Below, piece after piece: positions 468-19,029 of a stretch of 20,362 nt of DNA. Origin of the DNA: a virus; the IMG/VR virus record IMGVR_UViG_3300017710_000077, positions 1 to 20,362 of that record. One strand, given 5' to 3'. Made by a program: the position numbers and the translations under genes. Within the stretch, counting starts at the first letter, position 1. Each line of letters opens with the position of its first letter. The notes beneath the pieces are model-generated. The model was not told the DNA's origin and ran no database searches. It saw nothing but the letters and a program-made list of their open reading frames with translations.

Positions 468-737
468 ATGATAACACTTAGTATTATATTAACATTAGTA
501 GTAACAATTTCTTTTTTTGTTGTTAAAAATTTAATTAAAAAAAATGAAAATCAAGAAGATATTTTAAAAAATTATGAAAATTTTATTACTAAACAGAGTG
601 AAGCAATAAATGCATGTAATCAAAGATTAAATGAAGTAGATAATAAGGGTATATTTAAAGCAGATGATGAAATAGGATGGATGTTTGAAGAAATTAAAAA
701 AATACAAGATGCTTTAAACGAATTTACTCTTAAATAA
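468..737 (+). CDS. Small membrane-anchored coiled-coil protein
   Basis: An 89-residue protein. Residues 2-21 form one hydrophobic helix with no charged residue, followed by a Lys-rich stop (NLIKKNE). This fits a single N-terminal membrane anchor with the rest facing the cytoplasm. Residues 25-60 look alpha-helical, and a DDEIGWMFEEIKKIQ segment lies near the C terminus. Short anchored proteins with a similar acidic DDE(I/V)G motif are, as far as I recall, common in environmental T4-like phages, but I know of no demonstrated role. It starts 2 bases after the preceding stop and ends 14 bases before the sigma factor gene, so it is probably co-transcribed with both. There is no Shine-Dalgarno sequence; the start context is AAAGATTAAAC before ATG. 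Confidence 0.85.
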   Translation: MITLSIILTLVVTISFFVVKNLIKKNENQEDILKNYENFITKQSEAINACNQRLNEVDNKGIFKADDEIGWMFEEIKKIQDALNEFTLK

Positions 738-751
738 ATGTAAAAACACAC

Positions 752-1510
752 ATGACAAACAGAATCCCACAAGAACCAGTAATCACTGGTTCTCTTGCGC
801 CAGAACCAAAAAGAAGAGGAAGAAAAAGAACTAAAAAAAGGTATTTTACAGAAGATACAGACGCAGCTATAAAAGAATACTTAGCATCTTCAAATCAAGA
901 TAAAAGAGATTATATATTTAAAACAAGAATACATTACCCTTTTTATAAATTAGCAGAAAATCTTATCCATACATTTAAATTCTACTATACAGAAGTAGAT
1001 AATTTAGAAGATTTAAAACATGAAGTAATTTGTTTTCTTTTAGAAAAATTAGATTATTTCAAACCAGAAAAAGGTACTAAAGCATTTAGTTATTTTTCTA
1101 TTGTAGGTAAAAATTATCTTATATTATATAATAATAACAATTATAAAAAGAAAAAACAAAAAGCAGATCCTTTGGCAGCAGACGAAGATGAAGGAGTTTT
1201 ACGTCAGTTAGGTAGAGATGAACGTAAACAAGAAATTAAAGATTTTATAGATTATTTTACTGAATATATTGATAAAAATATGTTTATAATGTTTAAAAAA
1301 GATAAAGATAGAAAAGTATGTGATGCTATAAATGTACTTTTTAAACGTAGAGAAAATTTAGAAATATTTAATAAAAAAGCACTTTATATTTATATTAGAG
1401 AAATGACAGATGTAGATACCCCAGTTATTACTAAAGTAACTAAAAAATTAAAAGTTTTATATAAAGAACTTTACTCTGAATTTATTGAAACGGGGTATGT
1501 AAAAGTCTAA
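752..1510 (+). CDS. 55: Late-transcription sigma factor, T4 gp55-like
   Basis: This is a 252-residue protein that I read as the phage sigma factor directing host RNA polymerase to late promoters. Residues 1-32 are a basic tail (PKRRGRKRTKKRY). Residues about 60-130 resemble sigma region 2: DNLEDLKHEVICFLLEKL, then FKPEKGTKAFSYFSIVGKNYLI. The KxxxAFSYF block is a hallmark of gp55-type and other region-2 sigma proteins. A charged linker follows, and residues about 185-245 are helical and could be a divergent DNA-binding region. T4 gp55 is shorter (185 residues). The C terminus (ETGYVKV) lacks an obvious hydrophobic-acidic sliding-clamp-binding tail like that of T4 gp55. The shared motif upstream of genes at 1537, 5316 and 18287 is its natural candidate target. 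A host-type or other ECF-like sigma is the alternative reading. Confidence 0.85.
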   Translation: MTNRIPQEPVITGSLAPEPKRRGRKRTKKRYFTEDTDAAIKEYLASSNQDKRDYIFKTRIHYPFYKLAENLIHTFKFYYTEVDNLEDLKHEVICFLLEKLDYFKPEKGTKAFSYFSIVGKNYLILYNNNNYKKKKQKADPLAADEDEGVLRQLGRDERKQEIKDFIDYFTEYIDKNMFIMFKKDKDRKVCDAINVLFKRRENLEIFNKKALYIYIREMTDVDTPVITKVTKKLKVLYKELYSEFIETGYVKV

Positions 1511-1536: not shown

Positions 1537-1905
1537 ATGGATTCATTAAATCAAATACTTTTTGACGATAAATCCTTTGGTGATTTACTCAAAGAAATTC
1601 ATGGCAATCAAAAGAAAAAAGCAAAACAACTTGCATCTTTAATAGCAGAATTACGTCCTTTAGTTCAATCTTTAGGTGATGCTACTGTAGTAGTTCCTTT
1701 AATTAAAGAATATATGGAAATTAGTGTTAAAAATGATGACCAACTTATCAAAATGGCTGCTATTGTACAACGTTTATCTACAGGTGCTGCTTCAACAGGA
1801 GATGGTGGATTATTAACTAATGAAGAAATGGATCAATTAATGGATGTAGCTGAAGAAATAGCTAAAACAGTTGAAAATCCAAAACAAATAGAAGAACCTA
1901 AATAA
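1537..1905 (+). CDS. Small helical protein heading the hub operon, unrecognised
   Basis: A 122-residue, mostly helical and acidic protein. The N terminus (residues 1-20) carries SFGDLLKEIHGNQKKKAKQL. A long amphipathic helix follows to about residue 85, then a Gly/Ser/Ala-rich hinge (TGAASTGDGG), then a C-terminal helix with NEEMDQLMDVAEEI and a polar tail. I do not recognise the family. It is the first gene downstream of putative late promoter 1, and it sits 1 base before the gp5-like hub gene. This suggests a late role such as a tail or baseplate assembly factor or a small structural subunit. That rests on context only. There is no Shine-Dalgarno sequence; the start lies directly after the AT-rich promoter motif. 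Confidence 0.85.
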   Translation: MDSLNQILFDDKSFGDLLKEIHGNQKKKAKQLASLIAELRPLVQSLGDATVVVPLIKEYMEISVKNDDQLIKMAAIVQRLSTGAASTGDGGLLTNEEMDQLMDVAEEIAKTVENPKQIEEPK

Positions 1906-1906
1906 A

Positions 1907-2761
1907 ATGGCAGTATATAAAAAAGACAGAATAAATATATCTGCATCACCAGAAAGTTCTAAATTACTAGCAGTAAGAGTATTAGATATAATATTAGATA
2001 TAGAACACCCATATGCAGAACAATTTGGTAAACATGATGCTATAGGGGCTATTACTTTTACTTATTTAGATGATAATTTACCTTTAGAAAGAGCTTGGTT
2101 AAGTGGTAATAGTGCTTTTCCTTTATTTGCAAATATTAAAAATTATCCTTTAAAAAATGAAATAGTATTAATATTATCTACTTATGATAAAAATACATAT
2201 AGAAATAATTCTACATCTAATTTTTATATTCCTAGTTTAAATATATGGAATCATCCACACCATAATGCTCTTCCCACAATCCAAAATACAAAAAATCCTA
2301 ATGTATTAGCTGATTATACAAATTCAGAAAATGGAGCAATATCCAGACAAGTAACAGATGGAAGTACAGATATAAATTTAGGAAAATATTTTAGAGAACA
2401 AGTAAGAATTAAACCTTTATTACCTTATGAAGGTGATATGATTGTAGAAGGTAGATTTGGAAATTCTATAAGATTAGGATCAACATCACAAGCTATAAGT
2501 ATGATGGGGGATCAAGTAATTCCAGAAGCAAATAAAAATAGATGGAGCGATTTAGGTCAAAATGGAGAACCTATTATAATTATAAAAAATGGACAAAGAA
2601 TAGAAGAAATAAACGATAAAGGTTGGGAACACACAGTAGAAAATATAGACTTAGATGATTCTAGTATTTATCTAACTTCTAACCAACAAATAACAGATTT
2701 TACTCCTGCTTCAGATAATGAAGATTCATATCTTGCAGGAGAATCTTTACTTCCAATATAA
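1907..2761 (+). CDS. Baseplate hub protein with OB-type domain, gp5-like
   Basis: A 284-residue protein. Residues about 20-110 read as an OB-type beta barrel like the N-terminal domain of T4 gp5, the hub protein that joins the tail tube to the spike. They contain RVLDIILDIEHP, a GAITF strand and FANIKNYPLKNEIVLIL, a pattern I associate with gp5-type proteins of environmental T4-like phages. Residues about 170-235 hold LPYEGDMIVEGRFGNSIRLG and NGEPIIIIKNGQ, which looks like a second beta-rich segment. No lysozyme catalytic segment is visible; a separate peptidase gene follows instead. The stop overlaps the next start by 1 base (TAATG). The start context is AATAAA before ATG, with no Shine-Dalgarno sequence. 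The call rests on remembered motif patterns. Confidence 0.7.
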   Translation: MAVYKKDRINISASPESSKLLAVRVLDIILDIEHPYAEQFGKHDAIGAITFTYLDDNLPLERAWLSGNSAFPLFANIKNYPLKNEIVLILSTYDKNTYRNNSTSNFYIPSLNIWNHPHHNALPTIQNTKNPNVLADYTNSENGAISRQVTDGSTDINLGKYFREQVRIKPLLPYEGDMIVEGRFGNSIRLGSTSQAISMMGDQVIPEANKNRWSDLGQNGEPIIIIKNGQRIEEINDKGWEHTVENIDLDDSSIYLTSNQQITDFTPASDNEDSYLAGESLLPI

Positions 2762-3618
2762 TGGTTAAAAAAAAAGAAAATATAATAATTAAACCAGAAA
2801 TAGAAGATATTTCTTTTAAATCAGGTAATATAAAAGAAGATGTAGTATTACATTCTCCAAAAACACCTACTATTATTGAACAAATGATAGAAAGTGAATT
2901 ACCTTGGGATGTACAAGAACAAACATCATATATAATAGAAAGAAAAACAGACACCCAATTCTTAAATTATGAAAATGATGTAATATTAAATACTTTAACA
3001 AAACCAACAAAATCAACCCCTGAATTATATACATTATCTTCAGGTAGTATATCAGAAATATATAGTCCATTAGAACAAAATATAGGAAACTATTATAAAT
3101 TAAAACAATTAATATCTTATGATTATAAAAATCCAACATTTAGTGAAATAAATAACTATCCAGGAGTAGATTTAAATTATAATGGAGAACAAATAGTTAA
3201 AAATTTAAAAAATTTAATGGAAAATTGTGTAGATAGAATAATTGAAGCATATCCTAATTTTATATTAATATCTGCTTATAGAAGTTTAACATTAAATAGA
3301 ATGATTGGAGGTTCTCATGATAATAGTAATCATATAAGTGGATGTGCTATTGATTTTAAAATATCAGAAGAACATACATCTTATATATTTAATTGGTGTA
3401 TTAAAAATTTACCAGAATTTTATGAATTAATGTGGGCTTATCCTGAAAGAGGAAATAAATCATGGATTCATATATCTTATAAAAAAGGACAAAATATAAA
3501 AAGAACAACATTAGCTTCAGAAAGAGAAGATATTCATAAATCTTATGGAGGGTATAGAAGAGGATATAAACAAGAATATCAAGAAGGAATAGTAGAAGCA
3601 ATTCAAAATTTAGTATAA
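2761..3618 (+). CDS. Tail-associated M15-type zinc peptidase (cell-wall hydrolase)
   Basis: A 285-residue protein whose second half is an M15-family (D-Ala-D-Ala carboxypeptidase/endolysin-like) domain. The visible zinc site fits the family: H191 and D198 in SNHISGCAIDF, and H237 in SWIHIS. The SAYRS motif upstream (R174) also matches the family. Members cleave peptidoglycan cross-linking peptides. Residues 1-120 are polar and form no recognisable domain; they may dock the enzyme to the hub. There is no signal peptide, and the gene sits between the OB hub gene and the spike gene. A tail-borne enzyme that opens the wall during DNA entry is therefore more likely than a lysis endolysin. T4 uses a lysozyme domain fused inside gp5 for this. 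A lysis role remains possible. Confidence 0.8.
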   Translation: MVKKKENIIIKPEIEDISFKSGNIKEDVVLHSPKTPTIIEQMIESELPWDVQEQTSYIIERKTDTQFLNYENDVILNTLTKPTKSTPELYTLSSGSISEIYSPLEQNIGNYYKLKQLISYDYKNPTFSEINNYPGVDLNYNGEQIVKNLKNLMENCVDRIIEAYPNFILISAYRSLTLNRMIGGSHDNSNHISGCAIDFKISEEHTSYIFNWCIKNLPEFYELMWAYPERGNKSWIHISYKKGQNIKRTTLASEREDIHKSYGGYRRGYKQEYQEGIVEAIQNLV

Positions 3619-3619
3619 T

Positions 3620-4126
3620 ATGAGTTACATACCAACAAAACCAGGATTATTTCAAGGAAAACAAGTACTTATAAATTCAGATAGATTAGTATTTAATGCT
3701 AAAAATGATTCAATATTATTATATTCTGATAAAGTTATAGGATTTAGTACTAATGGAAGTATTCATTTTGACACAACAAATATAGATAAAAATAAATTTA
3801 TAGTAAATGCACCTAATATTTATTTAGGTTTAAATAAACATGATCAATCATTACCATCTAATCCAGCAATTTTAGGAGATGAATTAGGAGAATTTTTAGG
3901 AGGAGATACAGGAGTATTAGAAATATTTCTTGATATGATAGATGTAATATGTGATCATTTACAATTCCAATGCCCTTCAGGAGGAAAAGGAAAATTAACT
4001 ACAGCAAACTGGAAAAATGAAGGTATGTTTGCAGCCATAAAAGGAAGAGTACAAGAATTAAAAGATGATGCTATGGCTAAACCTGGAATAAGTTCAATAA
4101 AAAGTGATATAACTAAAATAGGATAA
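3620..4126 (+). CDS. Baseplate central spike protein (gp5 C-terminal/gpV-like)
   Basis: A 168-residue protein. Residues about 12-75 are short alternating beta strands (VLINSDRLVFNAKNDSILLYS, then GSIHFDTTN and KFIVNAPNIYLGL). This resembles the beta-helical prism of trimeric phage spikes. The stretch that follows, LPSNPAILGDELGEFL, matches the PAxLGdxL segment commonly found after the beta region in gp5/gpV/VgrG-like spikes, with a helical tail behind it. In the virion it would form the membrane-piercing needle under the hub. It begins 1 base after the peptidase gene, and with the OB protein and the peptidase it would reconstitute the parts that T4 gp5 carries in one chain. I saw no separate PAAR tip gene in the window. 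Confidence 0.65.
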   Translation: MSYIPTKPGLFQGKQVLINSDRLVFNAKNDSILLYSDKVIGFSTNGSIHFDTTNIDKNKFIVNAPNIYLGLNKHDQSLPSNPAILGDELGEFLGGDTGVLEIFLDMIDVICDHLQFQCPSGGKGKLTTANWKNEGMFAAIKGRVQELKDDAMAKPGISSIKSDITKIG

Positions 4127-4127
4127 A

Positions 4128-5279
4128 ATGTCAACACAACAAGTAAGTCTTTTAATGAACCGTGAAATAAGCGGTGTAATGATGAAAGCTAAATCAAAAA
4201 TAAAAGATGAAGGTAAAAAAATGATAAAAGAAAAAGTTTTATCAAAATTACCTTCAAAAGATGAAATTAAAGAAAAATTAATATCAGCTGCTTGTAGTAT
4301 ATCTGCTCAAGAAAAAATGAAAAAGGTATACAATAAATTACATGGTATTTTAGAAAAATTAGAAGCAATATTATTAAAAGCTAAAGGTAAATTAGATGCT
4401 ATTAATGCAAAAATTAAAAAAATAACAGATGGAATATTACCAAAAATAGCAATAATATTTGGTATATTAGCAGTTATATTAATAGTAGTTGAAATATTAA
4501 TGATAGTAGCTAAATTAGGAATAAATTTTTTAGTAGGTATGTTAGCTCATGGTGGTATACAACAAAAATTAGCTATGATAATTATTAAGGGTATAGGAAT
4601 AATTGGTGAATTTGGAGGAATGATAAAATCGGGATCAAAAGCAGCCAAAAAGTATATGAAAATGGCTTTAAAAATAGTAGCATCTATATTAGCAGCTGTT
4701 CTTTTAATTCAACCTATTTTAGATCTTGTACAAAAAATGATGGCATTTATAGAATATTTATATTTAATGTATCTCCAAATGTGTAATACATCAAATTCCT
4801 CTGTTAGAGATTCTGATGGAAATATAAATGAATCTTTATTAGAATCAGAAATATTAAAAAATGACCCAACAGGATTATACCCTGATCCTAATGTATTAAA
4901 TGGAAATAAAGGATTAGGAAGTGATGTAGGTTTAGGAACAGTAGGAACTGGTCCTGGTAATAATGGAAATACAGGTACAGGTACAGGAGCAGGTATGGGT
5001 ATAGGAAATGGAATAAATGGAAATTTAGGTTCAGGTAATGGTATAGGAGCTGGAGGAAATCAAGGACTTCCAGGATATGGAGGAACAGGAACAGGTGCAG
5101 GAGGAGGAGTTGTAAATAACTCAGAACTTGGAGGTATTTCAGAAAGATTAACTACAATTTATGAAGATCTTATATTAGAACTTGAAGGACAAGGAAAAAA
5201 AGAAATAGTAGAACATTTACAAAATTTAGATTTTGGATTTAAAACAAGATTTGAAAGAAAAATTGTACCAATAAATTAA
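4128..5279 (+). CDS. Hydrophobic, glycine-rich tail protein; possible tape measure
   Basis: A 383-residue protein with four visible parts. Residues 1-100 are a Lys/Glu-rich, coiled-coil-like helical region. Residues about 103-142 and 173-202 are strongly hydrophobic helices able to span a membrane. Residues about 261-330 are a Gly/Asn/Thr low-complexity stretch in which GTGTGAG occurs twice. A short helical C-terminal domain ends the protein. Helical regions with hydrophobic segments are typical of tape measure proteins, which set tail length and may enter the host membrane. It follows the spike gene. T4 gp29 is longer (590 residues), and a 70-residue glycine linker is unusual for a ruler. 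A baseplate-hub pore protein is the main alternative. I do not recognise the family. Confidence 0.45.
   Translation: MSTQQVSLLMNREISGVMMKAKSKIKDEGKKMIKEKVLSKLPSKDEIKEKLISAACSISAQEKMKKVYNKLHGILEKLEAILLKAKGKLDAINAKIKKITDGILPKIAIIFGILAVILIVVEILMIVAKLGINFLVGMLAHGGIQQKLAMIIIKGIGIIGEFGGMIKSGSKAAKKYMKMALKIVASILAAVLLIQPILDLVQKMMAFIEYLYLMYLQMCNTSNSSVRDSDGNINESLLESEILKNDPTGLYPDPNVLNGNKGLGSDVGLGTVGTGPGNNGNTGTGTGAGMGIGNGINGNLGSGNGIGAGGNQGLPGYGGTGTGAGGGVVNNSELGGISERLTTIYEDLILELEGQGKKEIVEHLQNLDFGFKTRFERKIVPIN
4971..5109 (+). repeat. Glycine-rich low-complexity coding tract
   Basis: The DNA is built from degenerate GGWACAGG / GGAGCAGG / GGAAATGG units. The block ACAGGTACAGGAGCAGG near 4977 recurs in altered form near 5086, and both encode GTGTGAG. 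It lies inside the 4128-5279 gene and is in frame throughout. It probably evolves by slippage and encodes a flexible linker. Confidence 0.6.
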
Positions 5280-5783: not shown

Positions 5784-6188
5784 ATGCCTATAATTCAAGG
5801 AGTAAAAAGAAAAAACCCATTAGATATTAATAGAAATGTTACTATTGGGGTAGCTTTTCCCTTAGATGAAACAAATATGTTTACAGGAACTCCTACTACT
5901 AAGGAACAAGTTAAAAGTAATCTTTTAAATCTTTTATTAACAAAAAAAGGAGAAAGAATAAATCATCCAGGGTTTGGTATAGGATTACAAAATTTTTTAT
6001 TTGAAAATAATATAGATAGTGAAGCAGTAAATGAAGAAATACATAATCAAATTCAATTTTATATTCCTGAAATAACATTATCAGATACACAGATAAATTT
6101 TAATCCAGATGAACATACTATAACAATAAAAATAATATATGAATTTAACTTAGATAGTACTCAAGATGCTATCTTAATAACTGTTTAA
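5784..6188 (+). CDS. 25: Baseplate wedge protein, gp25/GPW-like
   Basis: A 134-residue protein of the gp25/gpW baseplate family, the same size as T4 gp25 (132). The family signature runs through residues about 37-75: TKEQVKSNLLNLLLTKKGER, then NHPGFGIGLQNFLFE. A short beta-rich C-terminal part follows, ending in IKIIYEFNL. In contractile tails this protein joins the gp6 wedge to the sheath and helps trigger contraction. The gp6-like gene follows after 1 base, the conserved gp25-gp6 pairing also seen in other contractile systems. The family was once called lysozyme-like, but no catalytic site is implied. This is one of the most secure calls in the window. Confidence 0.92.
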   Translation: MPIIQGVKRKNPLDINRNVTIGVAFPLDETNMFTGTPTTKEQVKSNLLNLLLTKKGERINHPGFGIGLQNFLFENNIDSEAVNEEIHNQIQFYIPEITLSDTQINFNPDEHTITIKIIYEFNLDSTQDAILITV

Positions 6189-6189
6189 T

Positions 6190-8088
6190 ATGGCTTACTC
6201 AAAAGTATCAAATAAAAATCAAGATAAAGATGTAAAATACCTAAATAAAGATTATAATTCTTTTAGGGATCAATTAATGGAATTCGCAGAAGTTTATTAT
6301 CCTAATAATTTTAATGATTTTAGTGAAGGAAATCCAGGAATGATGTTTCTCGAAATGGCTGCTTATGTAGGAGACGTATTATCTTTTTACACTGATACTC
6401 AATTAAGAGAAAGTTTTTTATTATTAGCTCAAGAAGAAGAAAATTTATATAATTTAGCTTATTCTATGGGGTATAAACCAAAAGTAACAACAGCTGCTAG
6501 CACTATGTTAGATGTATATCAATTAGTCCCATCTATTCAAAATGTAGGAGATAGTACATATCATCCTGATTACACATATGCTTTAGATATAAACACTAAT
6601 TCTTCTTTTAAAACAGCAGATGATATAAAATTTTATACAGTAGATCCTGTTAGATTTAATTATTCTTCATCTATAGACCCCACAAATACAAGTGTATATC
6701 AATATGATTCTACAGATAATCCAGAATATTTTTTATTAAAAAAATCAGTAAAAGCCATATCTGGAGAAAAAATAACAACTCAATTTACTATAGGAGCTGC
6801 CGAAAGATTTAAAACAATAACTTTATTTAATTCAGATATAATATCAATAGAATCAATAAAAGATGATGAAGGAAATATATGGACAGAAGTCCCATATTTG
6901 GCTCAAGATACTGTTTTTGAAGAAGTTGAAAATACAGGAGCAAATGATCCTAAATTACAAGGATTTAATCATCAAACTCCATATCTTTTAAAATTAAAAA
7001 AAGTACCAAAAAGATTTGTAACACGTTTTAAATCAAACGAAGAATTAGAAATACAGTTTGGCCCAGGATCAACAGATAATGCTGATCCAATAATAACTCC
7101 AGATCCTAATAATATAGGTTTAGGAATTAAAGATGGAAGAAATAAACTAGATACAGCATATGACCCTTCTAACTTTATGTATACTAAATCTTATGGAGAA
7201 GCACCAGCAAATACAACATTAACAGTAACTTATTTAGTAGGAGGAGGTTTAAAATCTAATGTATCTGCAAATACAATTACCCAAATAGAAAATATAACAA
7301 CAACTCCACAACCTAATTTATCTGCAAATATGGCTACTTTTATAAGGGGGTCAATAGCTGTAAACAACCCAGAATCAGCAAAAGGAGGAGGAGCAGGAGA
7401 TTCTGTAGAAGAGATAAGAATGAATGCAATGGCTAATTTTTCTGCTCAACAAAGAACTGTAACAAAAGATGATTATATAATTAGAACTTTATCTTTACCC
7501 CCTAGGTTAGGCACTGTATCAAAAGCATATATAACTCAAGATGATCAGATTTCTCCTATGACAAATGAACCAAATCGTATTCCAAATCCTTTAGCTTTAA
7601 ATTTATATACTTTAGGATATAATGCTGATAAAAAAATAACAACATTAAATTCAGCTACTAAACATAATTTAATGACTTATTTAGAACAATTTAGAATGTT
7701 AACAGATGCTATTAATATTAAAGATGCTTTTCCTATTAATTTTAGTATAGATTTTGAAGTAACTGCTTTTAAAAATTATAATAATCAAGAAGTATTATTA
7801 GAATGTATATCAGAATTAAAAGATTATTTTAATATAGATAAATGGCAAATAAATCAACCTATTATCATATCAGAATTAGAAAATTTATTAGCAGGAGTAA
7901 AAGGAGTACAAACAGTAGAAAAAGTAGAACTTAAAAACAAATCAGGAACATCATTGGGATATTCCCAATATAAATATGATTTTATAGGAGCTACTAAAAA
8001 AAGAGTAATTTATCCATCATTAGATCCTAGTATATTTGAGTTAAAATACCCAGATACAGATATTAAAGGACGAGTAATAACATATTAA
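6190..8088 (+). CDS. 6: Baseplate wedge protein, gp6/J-like
   Basis: A 632-residue protein close in length to T4 gp6 (660). Residues about 17-95 carry the N-terminal gp6 signature: YLNKDYNSFRDQLMEFAEVYYP, then SEGNPGMMFLEMAAYVGDVLSFYTD. Residues about 398-450 carry the baseplate-J-like segment, GAGDSVEEIRMNAMANF followed by RTVTKDDYI. The C-terminal domain (about 500-632) is beta-rich with an EVTAFKNYNNQEVL strand pair. In T4, gp6 dimers form the iris-like ring of the inner baseplate that opens on contraction. It lies 1 base after the gp25-like gene and 1 base before the next gene, TTAAAATG context, with no Shine-Dalgarno sequence. Confidence 0.92.
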   Translation: MAYSKVSNKNQDKDVKYLNKDYNSFRDQLMEFAEVYYPNNFNDFSEGNPGMMFLEMAAYVGDVLSFYTDTQLRESFLLLAQEEENLYNLAYSMGYKPKVTTAASTMLDVYQLVPSIQNVGDSTYHPDYTYALDINTNSSFKTADDIKFYTVDPVRFNYSSSIDPTNTSVYQYDSTDNPEYFLLKKSVKAISGEKITTQFTIGAAERFKTITLFNSDIISIESIKDDEGNIWTEVPYLAQDTVFEEVENTGANDPKLQGFNHQTPYLLKLKKVPKRFVTRFKSNEELEIQFGPGSTDNADPIITPDPNNIGLGIKDGRNKLDTAYDPSNFMYTKSYGEAPANTTLTVTYLVGGGLKSNVSANTITQIENITTTPQPNLSANMATFIRGSIAVNNPESAKGGGAGDSVEEIRMNAMANFSAQQRTVTKDDYIIRTLSLPPRLGTVSKAYITQDDQISPMTNEPNRIPNPLALNLYTLGYNADKKITTLNSATKHNLMTYLEQFRMLTDAINIKDAFPINFSIDFEVTAFKNYNNQEVLLECISELKDYFNIDKWQINQPIIISELENLLAGVKGVQTVEKVELKNKSGTSLGYSQYKYDFIGATKKRVIYPSLDPSIFELKYPDTDIKGRVITY

Positions 8089-8089
8089 A

Positions 8090-9358
8090 ATGGCATATTA
8101 TTTTATATTTCCCGAAGCAGACACAACATTATACAGTCATCCTGATAGATTAAATTTAAATACAGGAAAAGATGAAATATTAGAAATTGTAAAAGAAATA
8201 GGAACAACAGATAAAAAACACTATCCATCTAGAGTTCTTATTAAATTTCCAACTAAGGAAGTTACAGATGTAATTGAAAATACTATAGGATCTTCAACAT
8301 TCAATTTAAAAACTTCATGTAGTATACAATTATATTCTACTGAGCACAAAAATTTAACAAAAATATTAAATTTACAATCCTTTCCCGTATCTCAATCATG
8401 GCATGAAGGATCAGGTAGATTCTCAAATTTACCTACAGGTTCAGATGGAGCAAGTTGGGAACATAGACATGATAGTGATGATGGAAATAAATGGATAAAT
8501 TTTGAAGCAGGAGTAGGATACTCAGAAATATTTCATGAAACTTTAAATCCAAATGGAGGTTTTGTAATAGAAGCATATACATCTTATACATCATCCCTTG
8601 GAGGATTATCTTATTATCCTATGTTTTATCCAGGTACTACAGGATCTATAAGTAGCTCAGCTATATCACATGGAGGGGGAACTTGGTGGACAGGTAGTGG
8701 TTTTAGTTCTACACAACAATTTTTACAAGGAAATAGTTTAGATATAGATATAAATGTTACAGATGCATTAAAAAAACACAGTGCAAGTTTTTTTGCAAGC
8801 CAAATATATCCTGATGGTATACCTAATCATGGATTTATAATAAAACAACCAGATTCTGTTGAAGCAAACACAACAAGTAGTTTTGGTGAAATGCAATATT
8901 TTTCAGTAGATACTAAAACAATATACCCCCCAAGATTAACATTTAAATGGGATGATAGTGTACATACTAAACAATCTGTAGCTAAAAAAAGTGGAGAATG
9001 TAGTCTGTATTTATATGGAAATAAAGAAGAATATAATCAAAATGATGAAGTCAAATTTAAAATTCATGTAAGAGATAAATATCCTACAAGAACGTTTGCA
9101 ACCTCTTCAAATTATTTAAATGTAAATTATCTTACAACTTCCTCTTATTATAGTATAAGAGATGCAAAAACAGAAGAAGAAATAATACCTTTTGATAATA
9201 ATTTTACAAAAATGAGCACGGATAGTAATGGAATGTTTTTTAAAATATACATGAAAGGTCTTCAACCAGAAAGATACTATCGTATTTTATTTAAACACGA
9301 AAATGATGATGGTATTACTGTGTATGATAATGATTATTATTTTAAGGTAGTTAGATAA
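8090..9358 (+). CDS. Baseplate-associated protein with DNRLRE-like beta sandwich
   Basis: A 422-residue protein. It opens with YYFIFPEADTTLYSHPDRLNLNTGKDEILEI, the lead-in typical of DNRLRE-type domains (ordered display of parallel strands on surface proteins). The second hallmark is at residues about 96-137: SQSWHEGSGRFSNL, then GASWEHRHDSDDGNKW. Middle residues are Gly/Ser/Tyr-rich. From about residue 290 the chain shifts to an Ig-like segment (SLYLYGNKEEYNQNDEVKFKI, and ERYYRILFKHENDD). No T4 baseplate protein looks like this by eye. The position directly after gp6, where T4 has gp7, suggests an outer wedge component. A fibre-anchoring role is an alternative. The stop overlaps the next start (TAATG). 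Confidence 0.6.
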   Translation: MAYYFIFPEADTTLYSHPDRLNLNTGKDEILEIVKEIGTTDKKHYPSRVLIKFPTKEVTDVIENTIGSSTFNLKTSCSIQLYSTEHKNLTKILNLQSFPVSQSWHEGSGRFSNLPTGSDGASWEHRHDSDDGNKWINFEAGVGYSEIFHETLNPNGGFVIEAYTSYTSSLGGLSYYPMFYPGTTGSISSSAISHGGGTWWTGSGFSSTQQFLQGNSLDIDINVTDALKKHSASFFASQIYPDGIPNHGFIIKQPDSVEANTTSSFGEMQYFSVDTKTIYPPRLTFKWDDSVHTKQSVAKKSGECSLYLYGNKEEYNQNDEVKFKIHVRDKYPTRTFATSSNYLNVNYLTTSSYYSIRDAKTEEEIIPFDNNFTKMSTDSNGMFFKIYMKGLQPERYYRILFKHENDDGITVYDNDYYFKVVR

Positions 9359-10989
9359 TGTCTCAAGAAAATTTAAAATTAAATAAAACAATATACAATA
9401 ACAAAGAATTTACAGATGTTATTGATAGGGAATTTTCTAGTCTTATAAAAACACAAAATACTATTAATGTAGAAAGATTTTTTGGTCTATATAGAGAATT
9501 ATTTTATAAAATAGAAAAATATGAAAATTCTAAATCTCATTATAAACTTATATTAGAAAGTCAAGATTATCTTAATAATTATATTGATTGGAGAGATCAA
9601 ATAATAAGTGATTTAATAGATAGAATAGGAGAATTAGAAAAGATTTTAATAGATAAACAAACTATAGAAAACAGAAGTCATCCTATTTACCCAGATGGTA
9701 CTTTTTTAAGATCACCCGCAAGAAATACTAATGGTTTACCTATATGGGTTATGCAAAATGGGGTTAAAAGAGAAATAAAAAATTATAATACTTTTAAAGC
9801 TTTAAAAAGAGCAGCAGGAAATCAATATGAAGATAATGATGATGATGTTTGTAGAAAACTAGAAATATCAGAATTAGATGATATATTAGATGGACCACAT
9901 ATAAAAGAAGATAATGATATTAATTTAAAAGATGGAGAAATAACAGATTTAGATATAACACTTCAAGGAATATCTGATTATGTTGAAGCTGAATTAACCT
10001 GCTTAGAAGGATCAGATGATCCTAATAATTTAGCCCCATTTAATACAACACAATATTCATCAAGATTTAGTTCTTGTAAAATAGAATATGAATCTTTAGA
10101 TATAAATGCACCTGGAAAAAGAAAATACATAACAGAAACAATATTTCCAGGAGAAACTAAATCTATAAAATATAGAAACAATGATGTAACTCTTCAAGGT
10201 TCTTTAAATATAATAGAAGGTTTCACACAAGAAAAAATAATAAAAGACACAGGTATAGATATAGGAGCTCCTATTAAACAAGATGCTTATGGAAATTGGA
10301 AAGATGAAAATAATAACTTTGTATATAGATATTATGATCTTCCTGGTGTTCCTTATAGCTTTAAAAAATATAGAAATTCTTCTTATGGTACTAAAATGAT
10401 ACAACCTACTTCAAGAAATACAGACGCATCTTGGTGGTTACCATATAATGATCATGCATTTAATGATGCTAATGAATTACAAATACAAGAAAGATTATTT
10501 GAAGAAGTACTTAATGATCCTACTAATGTTTATTATAATACAAATGTAACATGGAATGGATGGAGTGGTCCTTTAGGAGGGTTATATGGGGAACCTATAT
10601 ATTATCTTTCAAGTCCTATAGGAGAACTAGAAGGGTATAATAATATGTTTGTAGTAAAAACAGGAACTAATCTTGAAGATTTAAATGAAACAGGAGCTGG
10701 AAATTTATTATATAATGTTCAATATTATGTTATATTAAATAAAGATTATGAACCTTATAATCAATTAAATAGAATAAAATCATCTTTAGATTATTATTTT
10801 AGTCAAATTTTGTTAAATAATGTAGGAAGTGTTGAATTTTTAAACACAAAATCATACACAGATTTAGAACAAATAGCTTTAAATTGGAATTATCCAAAAT
10901 CAATATTTTTAAATAATTGGTGGTTAACTATGAGTAATTCTACTAGAAGTAATCAAAAATTAGTATATCCTGGATTTAATAATTTATAA
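9358..10989 (+). CDS. Baseplate-region structural protein, larger member of a tandem paralogue pair
   Basis: A 543-residue protein. Residues about 6-190 are homologous by eye to residues 3-175 of the next gene. Shared features in the same order are LNK.I, a D..FS block, VE.FF..Y.ELFY.IEK, a coiled-coil RDQIISDLIDRIGELEKIL, a basic GVKREIKN block, and a DDVC..L...ELDDILDGP block. The rest (190-543) is unique, aromatic and Asn/Tyr-rich, with a WWLPYNDHAFNDANELQIQERLF segment. I know no function. A coiled-coil N-terminal domain shared by two adjacent proteins suggests that both bind the same partner or each other in the wedge or periphery. The gene overlaps both neighbours by 1 base. Confidence 0.6.
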   Translation: MSQENLKLNKTIYNNKEFTDVIDREFSSLIKTQNTINVERFFGLYRELFYKIEKYENSKSHYKLILESQDYLNNYIDWRDQIISDLIDRIGELEKILIDKQTIENRSHPIYPDGTFLRSPARNTNGLPIWVMQNGVKREIKNYNTFKALKRAAGNQYEDNDDDVCRKLEISELDDILDGPHIKEDNDINLKDGEITDLDITLQGISDYVEAELTCLEGSDDPNNLAPFNTTQYSSRFSSCKIEYESLDINAPGKRKYITETIFPGETKSIKYRNNDVTLQGSLNIIEGFTQEKIIKDTGIDIGAPIKQDAYGNWKDENNNFVYRYYDLPGVPYSFKKYRNSSYGTKMIQPTSRNTDASWWLPYNDHAFNDANELQIQERLFEEVLNDPTNVYYNTNVTWNGWSGPLGGLYGEPIYYLSSPIGELEGYNNMFVVKTGTNLEDLNETGAGNLLYNVQYYVILNKDYEPYNQLNRIKSSLDYYFSQILLNNVGSVEFLNTKSYTDLEQIALNWNYPKSIFLNNWWLTMSNSTRSNQKLVYPGFNNL

Positions 10990-11852
10990 TGAGAAAAATA
11001 AGATTAAATAAAGAAATTTTTGGAGCTAGAGAATCTCGTGATTATTTAGATGAGGAATTTTCTGAAATAAAAATTAAAAAATACACAGTAGAAGAATTTT
11101 TTGAATTTTATGATGAATTATTTTATGATATAGAAAAAGAAGGACATTTATCTCATTCTACTATAATAGCTAAAAGCACAGAGTATGTTGGTACTCCCCC
11201 TAATCCAAAAGACCAAGAAATAATAGATTTAAAAGAACAAGTAAGAGATATACAATTTGAAATAGATTCTATAGAAGAAGAACACCCCTTTTTACCTAAT
11301 AGAACAGTTATTCAAGTCAGAAATCAACCTGCTCTTAGATATTATATGCAATCAGGAAGAAGAAGACAAATAAAAAATGATGAAATATTAAAATCTATAA
11401 GACAACAAACAAGAACAGCTGATGGAATACCTAATGAAGATTATTGTGTTTTATTAGATGCAGAAGCTATATTAAGTATACTTCCAGGACCAGATGTAGA
11501 AGTAGAAGCAGATTTAACAGTAAATACAGCTTTAATTAATAGGTATAACCCAGCACTAAGTTCTAAATCAAATGGTCAATTACAAGCAGCAGATATAAGG
11601 GCAGATATAGAACAAGGAATGAGATTAGAAAAACCAGATTTAAAAAACACATCAATAGTACCTGAAATGAGTCAATATAATCCTTTAGCTAATATAGAAG
11701 AACCAGGATTACCTCCAGGAGGATTAGATTTTACTACTTTAATTAATAATACTAATTCTTTTAATGAAAATCAAGAATCTCTAGATAATTGGCAAGGTAG
11801 AAATCAAAATTACAATACAAGAACCGTTAATGACGGAACAACATTATTATAA
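10989..11852 (+). CDS. Smaller member of the tandem paralogue pair
   Basis: A 287-residue protein. Residues 3-175 parallel the N-terminal domain of the preceding gene product: IRLNKEIF, DYLDEEFSE, VEEFFEFYDELFYDIEKEG, then KDQEIIDLKEQVRDIQFEIDSI, a QSGRRRQIKN block and DYCVLLDAEAILSILPGPDVE. The remaining residues (about 180-287) are Asn/Gln/Pro-rich and probably disordered, ending NYNTRTVNDGTTLL. It lacks the 350-residue C-terminal part of its paralogue, so it may be a duplicate reduced to the shared domain. The start and stop are both 1-base TAATG overlaps, which implies translational coupling in a late operon. The function is not known. Confidence 0.6.
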   Translation: MRKIRLNKEIFGARESRDYLDEEFSEIKIKKYTVEEFFEFYDELFYDIEKEGHLSHSTIIAKSTEYVGTPPNPKDQEIIDLKEQVRDIQFEIDSIEEEHPFLPNRTVIQVRNQPALRYYMQSGRRRQIKNDEILKSIRQQTRTADGIPNEDYCVLLDAEAILSILPGPDVEVEADLTVNTALINRYNPALSSKSNGQLQAADIRADIEQGMRLEKPDLKNTSIVPEMSQYNPLANIEEPGLPPGGLDFTTLINNTNSFNENQESLDNWQGRNQNYNTRTVNDGTTLL

Positions 11853-14800
11853 TGGCAGATAAAGTAATAAAAATAGAAAGTGATATTTTATTTAGTCCTA
11901 AACAAGGATCAATATCATCCCAAAATATAACTAAAACATTTGGTAGAAATGAAGACCATGTAGATGTCCATATATATGATCTTAAAAACAATTTACTCCA
12001 ATCTATAATAAATTGTACTGATTATTCATTTACAAATCAAAATACTCCTCCTTCTTCTACTTTAAATCCTACAAATGTAGAACCTGAAATAATAGAAGGA
12101 CTACCAGGAGCAGGTGAAAAAGATTATGATAGTCCAGGTCCTAATATGGCTAAAGACGGGTATTGGGTAAATACAGGACAAGAAAAAATATGGGTATCTA
12201 ATATACCTTTAAGTTCAGACAAAAATATAGGAACAACAGATGAAATGAGTATAGATCCTGAATCTATATTAAAAAAATCAGGATATACAACAGGTAAATA
12301 TATAGTTAAAATTAGTTTAAAAAGAAAAAAAATTTTTAACACTGAAGGATTTCCTTTTTCTATTAAAGAAATATCATCTAATCGTAAAGAAATAAGAACA
12401 GTAACTCCAAAAATACCAAATAATACTCTTAATGCAGCTGTTGGAAGTTTTATTTCAGAAATAGAAAGTTCAGTTTATTTTAAAGATTTTCATTTATCTT
12501 TTGGGCAAGATATTAATATTTTAGGAATAAATATTTTATTAAATAAAAATGCTTCTAAATATGAAGTTTTATTTAAATTATTAAACCCCTTACCTAATTT
12601 TATAACAAATCAAAGTAATTTTACTATATGTGAATATATAATAGATCCAGTAAAATATACAATAGATTTAGGATATCCAGCTACTGAAGATAATACTATA
12701 CCTTTAAGAGGTCCAAACACAAAAATAGATATAAGATTACATAATAGTATTCCATCAAAATTAAAAAACTATAACCAGATATTAGAATATGGAGTATCTT
12801 CTTCATATTATAATTTAATAAATAAATTAGAAAATCATGAAATACCCGAAGTAGATTATGATTTTATTCCTCCTGTATCTGAAAGCAAATATGAATTTTC
12901 TTATCATTTTGAAAATTTTGTACATTTTGGTAGTGCATTTGATCGTTTAAAAAACTTTGAACATAAAGTAGGATTATTAGAAACATATTCATCCCAATCA
13001 GGTAATTTAAATAAAGTACCTTTAAGCACATCTTCTTCTATTCGTATTAAAAATAATAAATCAGAAATAGAAAATAAAAAAAGTAAAATACTAAAGGGAT
13101 TTGATGGTTATGAACAATTTTTATATTATAATTCAGGATCTTTTGCTTCTTGGCCAAAATCAAACGATAAAAAACCTTATACATTACATTCAGTAACTTC
13201 TTCTGTAGTTAAAAATTGGTTAGGACATGAAATAGATACTTTTGGAGATTATGGAGGTCAATTATTATCTGCTTCTTTATTTGATACTCAAAATACTTAT
13301 TCTTTAAAAAGATTAGTACCTAACCATATTATAACCAATAAAGATAATGATTTTTATTTGAAGTTTGTTAATATGGTAGGACAGCATTTTGATAAAATAT
13401 GGCTTCATATAAAACATTTATCAAAAATAAATGATACTCACCATGTAAGAGGTATATCAAAAGATTTAGTTTATTTTACTTTAAAAAGTTTAGGTTTAGA
13501 AACATTTGATCAATTTGAAAACGCTAACTTAATAGAATATATTTTAGGAGAAGGAACCCAAGATAATAGAGTTGGAGAATTAATAATAGGAAGTTATATA
13601 GTAGATGGAACTACAAATCAATTTTATAATACACCTGAAGGAATAAAACATTATGTTACTGCTTCAAATGAAGGTTCACTTCCAAAAGGAGAAATTACTA
13701 GAGAAATTTGGAAAAGAATTTATCATAATGCACCTTATCTTTTAAAAACTAAAGGAACAGAAAGAGGATTAAGAGCATTAATGAGTTGTTATGGTGTTCC
13801 TGCTTCAATGTTAAATGTTAAAGAATATGGAGGACCAACAAAAGACAAATCAACATATAAAACTTTTACATATGATAAATCTTCATTTGCATTAAAAGGA
13901 GACTCAGGAACAGATGGATATTTTATAAAATCCCCATGGAGTTCATCCTTAACAGAAGATTTAAATGCATCAGCTAAAACAGTTGAATTTAGAATAAAAC
14001 CAAAAAGATCAGATGACTCTTACCATTTATTTAGTTTATCAGGTAGTGATGCAACAGCTGACCAACATTTAATATTAAATCCTTATACAGGAAATGATAT
14101 ATCATCTTCGGGAGATTCAACCCAATATGGAAAATTAGATTTATATATAAATGGAGCTGTAACAGCATCTACTAATAATTTTCCTATTTACAATGGTGAT
14201 TTTTGGAATATTCATATTGGAACAAATGGAACTTCAGGGTCAGGAGGAAGTGTACAATTTGGAGCCTATCAATCAAACTGGTTAAAAAACACATCTTATT
14301 ATACAGCTGAAATACCATTTTTTGATGAAAGAGATAGTGGACCATCTCCAAATCATCTTTGTGGAGAATATACAAGATCAGTTACATGGGGAGATCCTTA
14401 TTCTAGTAGTGCTGGTGGTTTATATAATAAAGGAGGAGCAGCTTATGTTTATATTGGAGGAATAAAAGCAAATAAAAATTCAGAATATGATTTAATAGAT
14501 AGTTTACGCTATTCAGGTTCTATTCAAGAAGTAAGATATCATTTTGGAGAATTACTTACACACGATACTCTTGTAAAACACTCACTTGGACCCTTTATAT
14601 ATGGTGGTAATGAAGTTTCTTCTTCTTATGAAACAATTGTAGCTAGATTTCCTTTAGGAAGTAATTTACATAAAGATAGTTCAAGTTTTCATCCTAATAT
14701 AAGTAAAAGATATATATCAACTCCTTCTAGTAGTATGACTACTCAATTATGGGAAGAAATAGATGAAATACACCACTTACCTACACCAGACACAGGAATA

Positions 14801-15685
14801 GCAACAACAAGTGAAAAAGTAAGAATAGACACAGGGATAATAGAAGACGATATATTATCTCATGAAGTAAGATCTGAAACTTCTACATTAGATAGACAAC
14901 CACAAGATTTTGAAGATTTAGGAGTATTTTTCTCACCACAAACAGAATTAAATGAAGATATAATTTATACCTTAGGTTCATTTAGATTAGATGACTATAT
15001 AGGTAATCCTTTACCTTCAGCACAAACATCTTCTATTTATAATGAATTAAAAGAATTAAAAGAATATTATTTTAAAAAAGTAACAAATAAATTTAATTTT
15101 TGGGATTATTTAAAAATGATCCAATACACTGATCACACATTATTTAAAATAATAGAACAATGGGTTCCATTTAAAACAAATTTAAAAACAGGTCTTTTAA
15201 TAGAACCACATTATTTAGATAGAAGTAAAGTAAAAAGAATATTACCAGTATATGATACAGGTCAAACAGCTGTTTCTGGATCTTATAATACTTTTGATTT
15301 AGAATTTACAACAACTTCTGGATCATCAGATAAATTTTATGGTTCAAAATTATTTCAAATAAAATCTGATATAGGAGGAGGAAGTGCTGTAACTATAATG
15401 AATTTTAAAAGAACCTTAGATGGCTTTTCAACAGGAAGTAAAGCAGTACAAGACAATAAAGGATATAGATTAGAACAAGGAACTAATACTACTTTAAATA
15501 TAAATGAATTATATGATTTTGATGAAGAAGTAGCACAAGCACCTATAAAACCCTTTTCGGGTTCTAAACCTGAAGGGTATAAAAAATATACTTCAAATAC
15601 TTTAATGGGAAATATTCAAAAAGGAAGAGTTTCTACTAGGTATTACCATAGTTTAGCAATTGGAAACCAAAATGATCTTCTATAA
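11852..15685 (+). CDS. Very large modular structural protein with LamG-like domain
   Basis: A 1277-residue protein. An N-terminal beta-rich part opens with IKIESDILFSPKQGS and EDHVDVHIYDLKNN. The middle has LLKTKGTERGLRALMSCYGVP (residues about 629-650), a block I recognise from large structural proteins of environmental and Bacteroidota phages. Residues about 670-900 look like a LamG/concanavalin-type jelly roll (SAKTVEFRIKPKRSDDSYHLFS, then YGKLDLYING, then DFWNIHIGTNG). Residues about 1065-1130 include DHTLFKIIEQWVP followed by KTGLLIEPHYLDRSK, a second conserved block. It is likely a baseplate-periphery or fibre-attachment protein, with the LamG fold perhaps binding a host glycan. Size and position suggest an analogue of T4 gp7/gp10, not a demonstrated homologue. 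It is downstream of the paralogue pair and overlaps it by 1 base. Confidence 0.7.
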   Translation: MADKVIKIESDILFSPKQGSISSQNITKTFGRNEDHVDVHIYDLKNNLLQSIINCTDYSFTNQNTPPSSTLNPTNVEPEIIEGLPGAGEKDYDSPGPNMAKDGYWVNTGQEKIWVSNIPLSSDKNIGTTDEMSIDPESILKKSGYTTGKYIVKISLKRKKIFNTEGFPFSIKEISSNRKEIRTVTPKIPNNTLNAAVGSFISEIESSVYFKDFHLSFGQDINILGINILLNKNASKYEVLFKLLNPLPNFITNQSNFTICEYIIDPVKYTIDLGYPATEDNTIPLRGPNTKIDIRLHNSIPSKLKNYNQILEYGVSSSYYNLINKLENHEIPEVDYDFIPPVSESKYEFSYHFENFVHFGSAFDRLKNFEHKVGLLETYSSQSGNLNKVPLSTSSSIRIKNNKSEIENKKSKILKGFDGYEQFLYYNSGSFASWPKSNDKKPYTLHSVTSSVVKNWLGHEIDTFGDYGGQLLSASLFDTQNTYSLKRLVPNHIITNKDNDFYLKFVNMVGQHFDKIWLHIKHLSKINDTHHVRGISKDLVYFTLKSLGLETFDQFENANLIEYILGEGTQDNRVGELIIGSYIVDGTTNQFYNTPEGIKHYVTASNEGSLPKGEITREIWKRIYHNAPYLLKTKGTERGLRALMSCYGVPASMLNVKEYGGPTKDKSTYKTFTYDKSSFALKGDSGTDGYFIKSPWSSSLTEDLNASAKTVEFRIKPKRSDDSYHLFSLSGSDATADQHLILNPYTGNDISSSGDSTQYGKLDLYINGAVTASTNNFPIYNGDFWNIHIGTNGTSGSGGSVQFGAYQSNWLKNTSYYTAEIPFFDERDSGPSPNHLCGEYTRSVTWGDPYSSSAGGLYNKGGAAYVYIGGIKANKNSEYDLIDSLRYSGSIQEVRYHFGELLTHDTLVKHSLGPFIYGGNEVSSSYETIVARFPLGSNLHKDSSSFHPNISKRYISTPSSSMTTQLWEEIDEIHHLPTPDTGIATTSEKVRIDTGIIEDDILSHEVRSETSTLDRQPQDFEDLGVFFSPQTELNEDIIYTLGSFRLDDYIGNPLPSAQTSSIYNELKELKEYYFKKVTNKFNFWDYLKMIQYTDHTLFKIIEQWVPFKTNLKTGLLIEPHYLDRSKVKRILPVYDTGQTAVSGSYNTFDLEFTTTSGSSDKFYGSKLFQIKSDIGGGSAVTIMNFKRTLDGFSTGSKAVQDNKGYRLEQGTNTTLNINELYDFDEEVAQAPIKPFSGSKPEGYKKYTSNTLMGNIQKGRVSTRYYHSLAIGNQNDLL

Positions 15686-15695
15686 AAAATAAGTT

Positions 15696-18236: not shown

Positions 18237-18261
18237 AAATCAATATTTTTGAAAACAATTT

Positions 18262-18275
18262 ATATTTATAACAAA
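18262..18275 (+). promoter_or_regulatory. Putative late promoter 3
   Basis: ATATTTATAACAAA differs from the copies at 1518 and 5288 by one base (T to C at position 11). It lies in the 50-base gap before the gene at 18287, with the core TATTTATAA ending 15 bases before the ATG. The leader after it, ACACACAAACA, is A/C-rich with no Shine-Dalgarno sequence. No -35-like element is evident. As with the other two, assignment to the gp55-like sigma is inference. Confidence 0.65.
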
Positions 18276-18286
18276 ACACACAAACA

Positions 18287-19012
18287 ATGGGATATTTAGA
18301 TAACACAAGCATCACAGTAGATGCAATTTTAACCAAAAAAGGAAGAGAATTACTAGCACAAGGAGGTATAGGAGCTTTTAATATAACACAATTTGCATTA
18401 GCAGATGATGAAATCGATTATACTTTATTTAATGAAAACCACCCAAATGGTTCTCAGTATTCAGGTGAAGCTATTGAAAACATGGCAATCACAGAAGCTA
18501 TACCAGATGAAAATAATATTATGAGATATAAATTAGTAACTCTTGAAGAGGGAACATCAGTTATTCCATTTATCTCTATAGGAATGAGTAAAGTAACATT
18601 ATCTGTAGGAGCTTCTAAAGCAATAACTCCACAAACACATAATTATAATGGAGTAGTAGGTGGTTTACCAGAACCAGGAGGATATAGATATACAATAGCA
18701 GATAATAGGTTACTACAATTAGTTGAAGGAACAGGTCCTTCTGCTGTTACTACAAACACAGCTACATCAACTACTACTACTAATACAACAGCACAAAGTG
18801 TAACAGTAGTAGGTAATAGTCTTAATTTAACAGCTAAAAGTGCAACATCATTATTTGGGACTCATAGTGAATTAACAACTACCTTAACAATTGAAGGTAT
18901 GACTACTTCCGCTAGAGTAACAATCCCTATTACATTAACTAAAAACGTAACAAACTTTAAAACAACTGGAGATAGTACAGATACTTCTGTAACTCCTTCA
19001 TCAGGTGTTTAA
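18287..19012 (+). CDS. Virion structural protein with Thr-rich insert
   Basis: A 241-residue protein. It opens with MGYLDNTSITVDAILTKKGR, then an ITQFALADDEIDYTLF segment. I recognise this pattern from structural proteins of environmental T4-like phages, but no specific role. Residues about 150-175 are Thr/Ser-rich (TATSTTTTNTTAQ, encoded partly by an ACT repeat at about 18770-18782). The C-terminal part (about 175-230) is a beta-rich, BIG2-like segment (SVTVVGNSLNLTAKS, then TTTLTIEGMTTSARVTIPITLT). Ig-like domains on tail proteins often decorate or bind surfaces. It is the first gene of the third late unit and starts 15 bases after the motif core. Confidence 0.7.
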   Translation: MGYLDNTSITVDAILTKKGRELLAQGGIGAFNITQFALADDEIDYTLFNENHPNGSQYSGEAIENMAITEAIPDENNIMRYKLVTLEEGTSVIPFISIGMSKVTLSVGASKAITPQTHNYNGVVGGLPEPGGYRYTIADNRLLQLVEGTGPSAVTTNTATSTTTTNTTAQSVTVVGNSLNLTAKSATSLFGTHSELTTTLTIEGMTTSARVTIPITLTKNVTNFKTTGDSTDTSVTPSSGV

Positions 19013-19029
19013 TAATTAAAAAATAAAAA

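What the first reader, a model, noticed from the sequence alone, without database searches (positions are those of the whole stretch)
1907..4126. T4 gp5 functions split across three genes, with a peptidase in place of lysozyme
T4 gp5 is a single chain with an OB domain, a lysozyme and a spike beta-helix. Here an OB-like protein, a separate M15-type zinc peptidase (H191, D198, H237) and a spike-like protein follow one another in that order, with a 1-base TAATG overlap at the first junction and a 1-base gap at the second. The result would be a cross-link-cleaving tail enzyme that is a free subunit rather than an insert.
Basis: partly seen in the sequence, partly recalled or inferred. Interest (0 to 1): 0.6.

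Follow-up and report, generated by a model that had tools for sequence, protein, structure and literature searches.

The report
Phage spike with separate peptidase gene
This marine virus fragment carries three neighbouring genes for a cell-puncturing tail spike (hub, cell-wall peptidase and needle); its relatives keep swapping, fusing or dropping the enzyme, and in this lineage the peptidase sits on its own chain with an altered active site.

Summary
Three adjacent genes encode an OB-like hub protein (1907-2761), an M15_3-type zinc peptidase (2761-3618; H191, D198, H237 invariant) and a spike-like protein (3620-4126), with the stated junctions. The tail-spike reading is supported by relatives, not by similarity to T4 gp5 (none found). 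In Microcystis phage Mel-JY01 and Flavobacterium phage immuto, hub and spike are one chain. In many IMG/VR relatives the M15 domain is fused to the hub protein in the same slot. That slot is an exchange site: M15, amidase, C39-like peptidase, phage tail lysozyme or nothing. The break between hub and enzyme sits at two different places, before or after the same linker. So the arrangement is one state of a fluid hub-linker-enzyme plus spike cassette. "Cross-link-cleaving" is not safe: the window's clade alone has changed two near-invariant M15 positions (E226A, Q222E), although the domain is under purifying selection. "Peptidase instead of lysozyme" and "separate M15 gene beside gp5" have precedents in T4-like phages (pf16; phiM12). 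New variant of a known kind. Virion incorporation and activity are untested.

The parts
1907..2761 (+). OB-like hub protein (gp5* N-terminal analogue), 284 aa; family signature NIWNHPHHNA ... PYEGDxIxEGRFGNSIRxGST ... GDPIxIIxNGQ
   Evidence: the same core is fused to enzymes or to the spike in relatives
2759..2763 (+). TAATG stop/start junction, conserved in all five S1 lineages
2761..3618 (+). linker + M15_3 zinc peptidase protein, 285 aa
2761..3078 (+). N-terminal linker (about residues 1-106), homologous to the C-terminal tail of hub proteins in S2 relatives
3079..3615 (+). M15_3 peptidase domain (about residues 107-285)
3331..3333 (+). His191, predicted zinc ligand
3352..3354 (+). Asp198, predicted zinc ligand
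3469..3471 (+). His237, predicted zinc ligand
3424..3426 (+). Glu222, where nearly all other M15_3 members have Gln
3436..3438 (+). Ala226, where all other in-frame aligned M15_3 members have Glu
3620..4126 (+). spike-like protein (gp5C analogue), 168 aa: short-strand ladder, then helices
   Evidence: matches the C-terminal half of OB-spike chains in Mel-JY01 (6e-11) and immuto (1e-7)
5784..6188 (+). gp25-like baseplate wedge protein (context)
6190..8088 (+). gp6-like baseplate wedge protein (context)

Best explanation
The three genes encode the central cell-puncturing device of a T4-type contractile tail. The 1907-2761 protein is the OB-type hub/adaptor. The 3620-4126 protein is the trimeric needle below it. 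The 2761-3618 protein is the tail-associated cell-wall enzyme, held by a flexible acidic/proline-rich linker. In many relatives OB-linker-enzyme is one polypeptide, and in the IMG/VR family the spike is a second one. In the window's clade (S1) hub and enzyme are separate chains with the boundary just after the OB core, so the linker begins the peptidase chain. TAATG coupling (inferred) would keep synthesis balanced, and the linker or the domain itself would dock the enzyme on the hub-spike (inferred). The enzyme is expected to act on peptidoglycan peptides during penetration (inferred). Shown: gene content, junction conservation, zinc ligands, fusion in relatives, linker homology, purifying selection, exchange of enzyme type. 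Inferred: virion incorporation, stoichiometry, docking, catalysis.
For: M15_3 is fused to the same OB core in many relatives, e.g. L019, L047, L051, L149. OB and spike are one chain in Mel-JY01 and immuto. Position upstream of gp25 and gp6 matches the T4-like baseplate cluster. The same slot holds Amidase_2, C39-like peptidase or Phage_lysozyme2 'phage tail lysozyme' (L100, 4.6e-13), all cell-wall enzymes; a viral fold match is a protein named for a GH19 domain (A0A6J5MDN0, 5.6e-6). Linker HMM from S1 peptidase N-termini hits hub-protein tails of S2 relatives at 5.7e-6, best shuffled control 0.056. S1 is one clade, 100/99. M15-domain dN/dS is roughly 0.25-0.45, lower than the linker in each comparison.
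Against: No sequence or profile similarity to T4-like gp5. Structure models are low confidence, and the spike model has no useful fold match. No proteomics. The PHROG name for the peptidase family is 'endolysin'. E226A/Q222E could mean altered or lost activity. No gp27-like hub or PAAR tip was recognised in this fragment.
Confidence: 0.72

Rival explanations
1. The S1 peptidase is in the spike complex but is catalytically reprogrammed or dead (a zinc-binding or cell-wall-binding subunit), because the clade lost the conserved acidic residue of the M15_3 QLIxE strand.
For: A226 in 7 of 7 distinct S1 sequences against E in 38 of 38 others of the set, and in the further phage enzymes fetched from isolates that align in frame; Q222E is co-restricted to S1.
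Against: Zinc ligands are kept and the domain is under purifying selection. The M15A archetype 1LBU has Glu in the 222 column, and E229 or E222 might supply the acid. That E226 is catalytic is inferred from conservation only.
Confidence: 0.3
2. The peptidase is the lysis endolysin, placed by chance in the tail cluster and never in the virion.
For: PHROG_894 is annotated endolysin; S2-type free M15 proteins look like stand-alone endolysins; an 89-aa single-TM protein at 468-737 weakly matches a holin family (0.016).
Against: The same domain is covalently part of the hub protein in many relatives, replaced there by other cell-wall enzymes. The S1 protein carries the hub linker. It lies between hub and spike in every S1 contig.
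Confidence: 0.12
3. The break is an assembly or sequencing artefact, or the two chains are joined by frameshifting into one OB-M15 protein.
For: Fused homologues of equal total length exist (L051, 567 aa, against 284+285).
Against: The TAATG junction is conserved in five lineages whose hubs are 62-78% identical to the window's, and no conserved slippery heptamer precedes the stop.
Confidence: 0.04

Closest known systems
T4 gp5 (OB - lysozyme - beta-helix; cleaved Ser351/Ala352; PMC3004832)
   Same: Order hub-OB, cell-wall enzyme, needle; the second gene boundary falls where T4 cuts gp5 into gp5* and gp5C
   Different: Separate genes, M15 instead of lysozyme, no detectable sequence relation
Pseudomonas phage pf16_208 (gp5 family, phrog_430)
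   Same: A gp5 protein (Gp5_OB) carrying an M15-type peptidase, upstream of gp25 and gp6
   Different: Single chain; M15 at the C-terminus after the spike-like region; Glu of the DQFLLE motif kept
Sinorhizobium phage phiM12 gp5 + SmphiM12_144
   Same: A separate M15-domain gene directly between gp5 and gp25 in a T4-superfamily phage
   Different: Its gp5 is annotated as still having a muramidase; the M15 protein is 520 aa and was not shown to resemble the window's outside the domain
Flavobacterium phage immuto (KNV73_gp116) and Microcystis phage Mel-JY01 (WWT39504.1)
   Same: Homologous OB core and spike
   Different: OB and spike in one chain; in Mel-JY01 a separate chitinase/endolysin-like gene follows; none seen next to it in immuto
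Phage P1 gp5 and Campylobacter phage F357 gp5
   Same: OB + needle without a built-in enzyme
   Different: In P1 the muralytic domain is proposed to be on the tape measure protein (PMC9024508); F357 gp5 shows only OB and trimer domains

Membership tests
Peptidase M15_3 (PF08291) | Profile match above curated cut-off | tested here: met
   33.6 bits against cut-off 23.2
Peptidase M15_3 (PF08291) | Zinc ligands H-x6-D ... H | tested here: met
   H191, D198, H237 invariant
Peptidase M15_3 (PF08291) | Conserved Glu of the QLIxE strand | tested here: not met
   Ala226 in S1; Glu in all other in-frame relatives aligned. Not a published membership criterion
Peptidase M15_3 (PF08291) | Peptidoglycan peptidase activity | not testable with these tools
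   needs enzyme assay
T4 gp5 family (Gp5_OB PF06714 / Phage_base_V PF04717) | Sequence/profile match of the OB domain | tested here: not met
   No Pfam match at E<=1; hhalign to T4 gp5 and a six-member gp5 alignment negative
T4 gp5 family (Gp5_OB PF06714 / Phage_base_V PF04717) | OB fold of the N-terminal domain | tested here: inconclusive
   Low-confidence model; OB folds dominate non-significant hits, VgrG and E217 baseplate chains also listed
T4 gp5C beta-helix (PF22178) | Profile match | tested here: not met
   no Pfam match for 3620-4126 at E<=1
T4 gp5C beta-helix (PF22178) | Trimeric beta-helix fold | tested here: inconclusive
   Monomer model pLDDT 66, short strands then helices, no useful fold match
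Central-spike cassette (works like gp5) | Hub, enzyme and needle linked in one module | tested here: met
   Hub-enzyme and hub-spike fusions in relatives
Central-spike cassette (works like gp5) | Proteins present at the virion tail tip | not testable with these tools
   needs proteomics or cryo-EM

The most novel reading that the evidence does not exclude
Separation of the enzyme from the hub and rewiring of its active site (E226A with Q222E) map to the same S1 branch, giving a diffusible or loosely docked zinc subunit with new specificity or a non-catalytic role, within a family whose hub-enzyme joint is a general exchange site for cell-wall enzymes.
Probability: 0.25. Interest if true: 0.65.

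Novelty: new variant of a known kind. Interest (0 to 1): 0.48.

Why it matters
It shows in one abundant marine phage family how a tail-spike cell-wall enzyme is swapped, fused, detached or lost while hub and needle stay the same: L149 and L134 hubs are ~81% identical up to residue ~395, then carry unrelated enzymes. That turns the question of how phages change their wall-penetration enzyme into a natural experiment. The coordinated active-site change is a concrete, cheap test of whether a detached tail enzyme is still an enzyme. Practically, the hub and spike proteins are invisible to Pfam and PHROGs and are annotated hypothetical, so the alignments allow annotation.

Tried and rejected
T4 gp5 homology by hhalign: no match. 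PDB sequence search with the OB alignment: nothing; with the spike alignment: only chance coiled coils. Fold search of the spike model: no usable match. Window peptidase alone against PDB: nothing; the M15 alignment reaches only 1LBU. Rooting the hub tree with Mel-JY01, immuto and LR756508: branches too long (2.9-5.6), so root and direction (fission or fusion) were left open. Frameshift joining of the two chains: no conserved slippery site. L136 was out of frame and is ignored there; it is in frame. Literature searches gave no paper on this family and no mutational test of the conserved Glu.

Full report
OBSERVATION. The window is a 20,362-bp IMG/VR virus fragment with a T4-type baseplate cluster: gp25-like (5784-6188) and gp6-like (6190-8088) genes are recognised by PHROGs. 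Tight junctions are ordinary in this genome, so junction geometry is not itself evidence of a special link. The middle protein is an M15_3 zinc peptidase by Pfam (33.6 bits, cut-off 23.2) and PHROGs; H191, D198 and H237 are the family's zinc positions and are invariant in every in-frame homologue aligned. The flanking proteins have no Pfam hit and no meaningful PHROG hit.

WHAT THE FLANKING PROTEINS ARE. A tblastn search of annotated phages with the 1907-2761 protein gave only Flavobacterium phage immuto, Microcystis phage Mel-JY01 and one uncultured jumbo phage. In immuto and Mel-JY01 the homologue is longer, and its C-terminal half matches the window's 3620-4126 protein (34% at 1e-7 and 32% at 6e-11; alignment). 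Hub-like and spike-like proteins of the window are thus one polypeptide elsewhere, upstream of gp25 and gp6. An AlphaFold model of the first protein is poor overall (pLDDT 53) but has a five-stranded region at residues ~20-110. Foldseek hits to the PDB are individually insignificant, but most are OB folds (uS12, PolD/Pol delta B subunits, telomere-end binding proteins, SSBs; fold classes from general knowledge), with VgrG and an E217 baseplate chain lower down. Among viral models the significant hits include a protein named for a GH19 enzyme domain (5.6e-6); weaker ones are a VgrG-like protein and a cyanophage baseplate hub/tail lysozyme. The OB assignment is therefore likely, not proven. The spike model was uninformative. 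No relation to T4 gp5 is detectable by profile comparison.

THE ENZYME SLOT IS FLUID. Two scans found about 180 IMG/VR relatives each; the 80 best per scan were read. Their gene order is conserved: 122-aa gene, hub, (enzyme), spike, 383-type gene, 154-type gene, gp25, gp6. The enzyme is carried in different ways: (S1, the window and L007-L013) M15 on its own gene, break right after the OB core; (S2, L023-L040, L044, L052-L057) M15 on its own gene, break right before the M15 domain; (F, e.g. L014, L019, L046-L051, L076, L136, L149) M15 fused to the hub; Amidase_2 fused (e.g. L062, L071, L079, L128, L134) or on a separate gene (L105 above cut-off, L102 just below); C39-like peptidase fused (L043; L081 just below cut-off); Phage_lysozyme2 fused (L100); nothing (L059, L064, L072). 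The hub tree makes S1 one clade (100/99) and rejects one clade for S2 (p-AU 0.01). Exchange is sharp: L149 (M15) and L134 (amidase) hub proteins are 81% identical over ~395 residues, then share nothing; L061 (amidase) and L059 (no enzyme) are 84% identical up to the loss point.

THE LINKER IS ON EITHER CHAIN. The first ~106 residues of the S1 peptidase are not M15. An HMM of S1 N-termini matches the C-terminal tails of S2 hub proteins at 5.7e-6 and fused-protein linkers more weakly; the best of the shuffled controls reached 0.056, and the alignment shows shared motifs. So the same linker is encoded either on the hub chain or on the enzyme chain. This is what two different breaks in an OB-linker-M15 chain, or two different fusions, would leave. 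Direction could not be rooted.

THE ACTIVE SITE DIFFERS IN THIS CLADE. All seven distinct S1 sequences have Ala at 226 and Glu at 222, where the 38 other sequences of the set have Glu (38/38) and Gln (37/38). Further diverse phage M15_3 enzymes fetched from isolates (Pelagibacter, crAss-like, Lak, Achromobacter, Moraxella, Burkholderia, PaBG, a microvirus, Stenotrophomonas, Synechococcus, pf16) all keep the Glu. Zinc ligands are kept, and the M15 domain evolves under purifying selection (dN/dS about 0.25-0.45, lower than the linker in each pair). The role of E226 as catalytic acid is inferred from conservation. The archetype 1LBU has Glu in the 222 column, so activity may persist in altered form.

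MECHANISM. Most likely the OB protein caps the tube, the spike protein forms the trimeric needle, and the peptidase rides beside it, as the lysozyme domains of T4 gp5 do. In T4 the single gp5 chain is cut between Ser351 and Ala352, and the pieces stay together as (gp27-gp5*-gp5C)3 (PMC3004832). Here the gp5*/gp5C boundary is genetic in the whole IMG/VR family read, and in S1 a second boundary separates hub from enzyme. The retained linker and the conserved TAATG junction argue for balanced production and docking, but both are inferences.

KNOWN RELATIVES AND NOVELTY. T4-like gp5 proteins are already known or found here with other enzymes: CHAP in CBA120, M15 in pf16 (PF08291 just below cut-off, phrog_894 4.6e-17), none in Campylobacter phage F357 or P1 (PMC9024508). 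In phiM12 a separate M15 gene lies between gp5 and gp25. The window's arrangement is thus a new variant of a known kind. What is new, as far as these tools show, is an unannotated marine family with an exchangeable, attachable and detachable enzyme module, and a clade-specific active-site change that goes with one of the separations.

Noticed in passing
window 4128-5279: 383-aa protein directly after the spike, with hydrophobic helix-like stretches and a Gly-rich C-terminal part; present downstream of the spike in nearly all relatives, no meaningful family match.
   Followed up: partly
window 1537-1905: 122-aa protein just upstream of the hub, among the most conserved in the cluster (up to 97% identity between contigs whose hubs are only ~60% identical), with no meaningful family match.
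   Followed up: no
window 752-1510: 252-aa protein with sub-threshold sigma-factor-like matches (Pfam Sigma70_r2 E 0.13, PHROG 1740 E 0.28); possibly a diverged late sigma factor.
   Followed up: no
window 468-737: 89-aa single-TM-like protein weakly matching a holin PHROG (E 0.016).
   Followed up: no
L042:2955-6867: Two tandem hub ORFs (620 and 678 aa) with related OB cores but different C-terminal parts; the second has an amidase-like domain (phrog_822).
   Followed up: partly
L122:3081-5477, L130:2593-5007, L137:3371-5785: Hub proteins of about 800 aa whose long C-terminal part has no Pfam match (L122 and L130 tested; L122 also none in PHROGs): possibly an unrecognised enzyme in the slot.
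   Followed up: partly
L021:451-2093 against L019:6001-7644: Closely similar contigs, one with the fused hub-M15 ORF broken in two; probably an assembly or sequencing frameshift.
   Followed up: no
window 8090-20139: Seven large baseplate-region proteins (up to 1277 aa) with no PHROG match at E 0.05.
   Followed up: no
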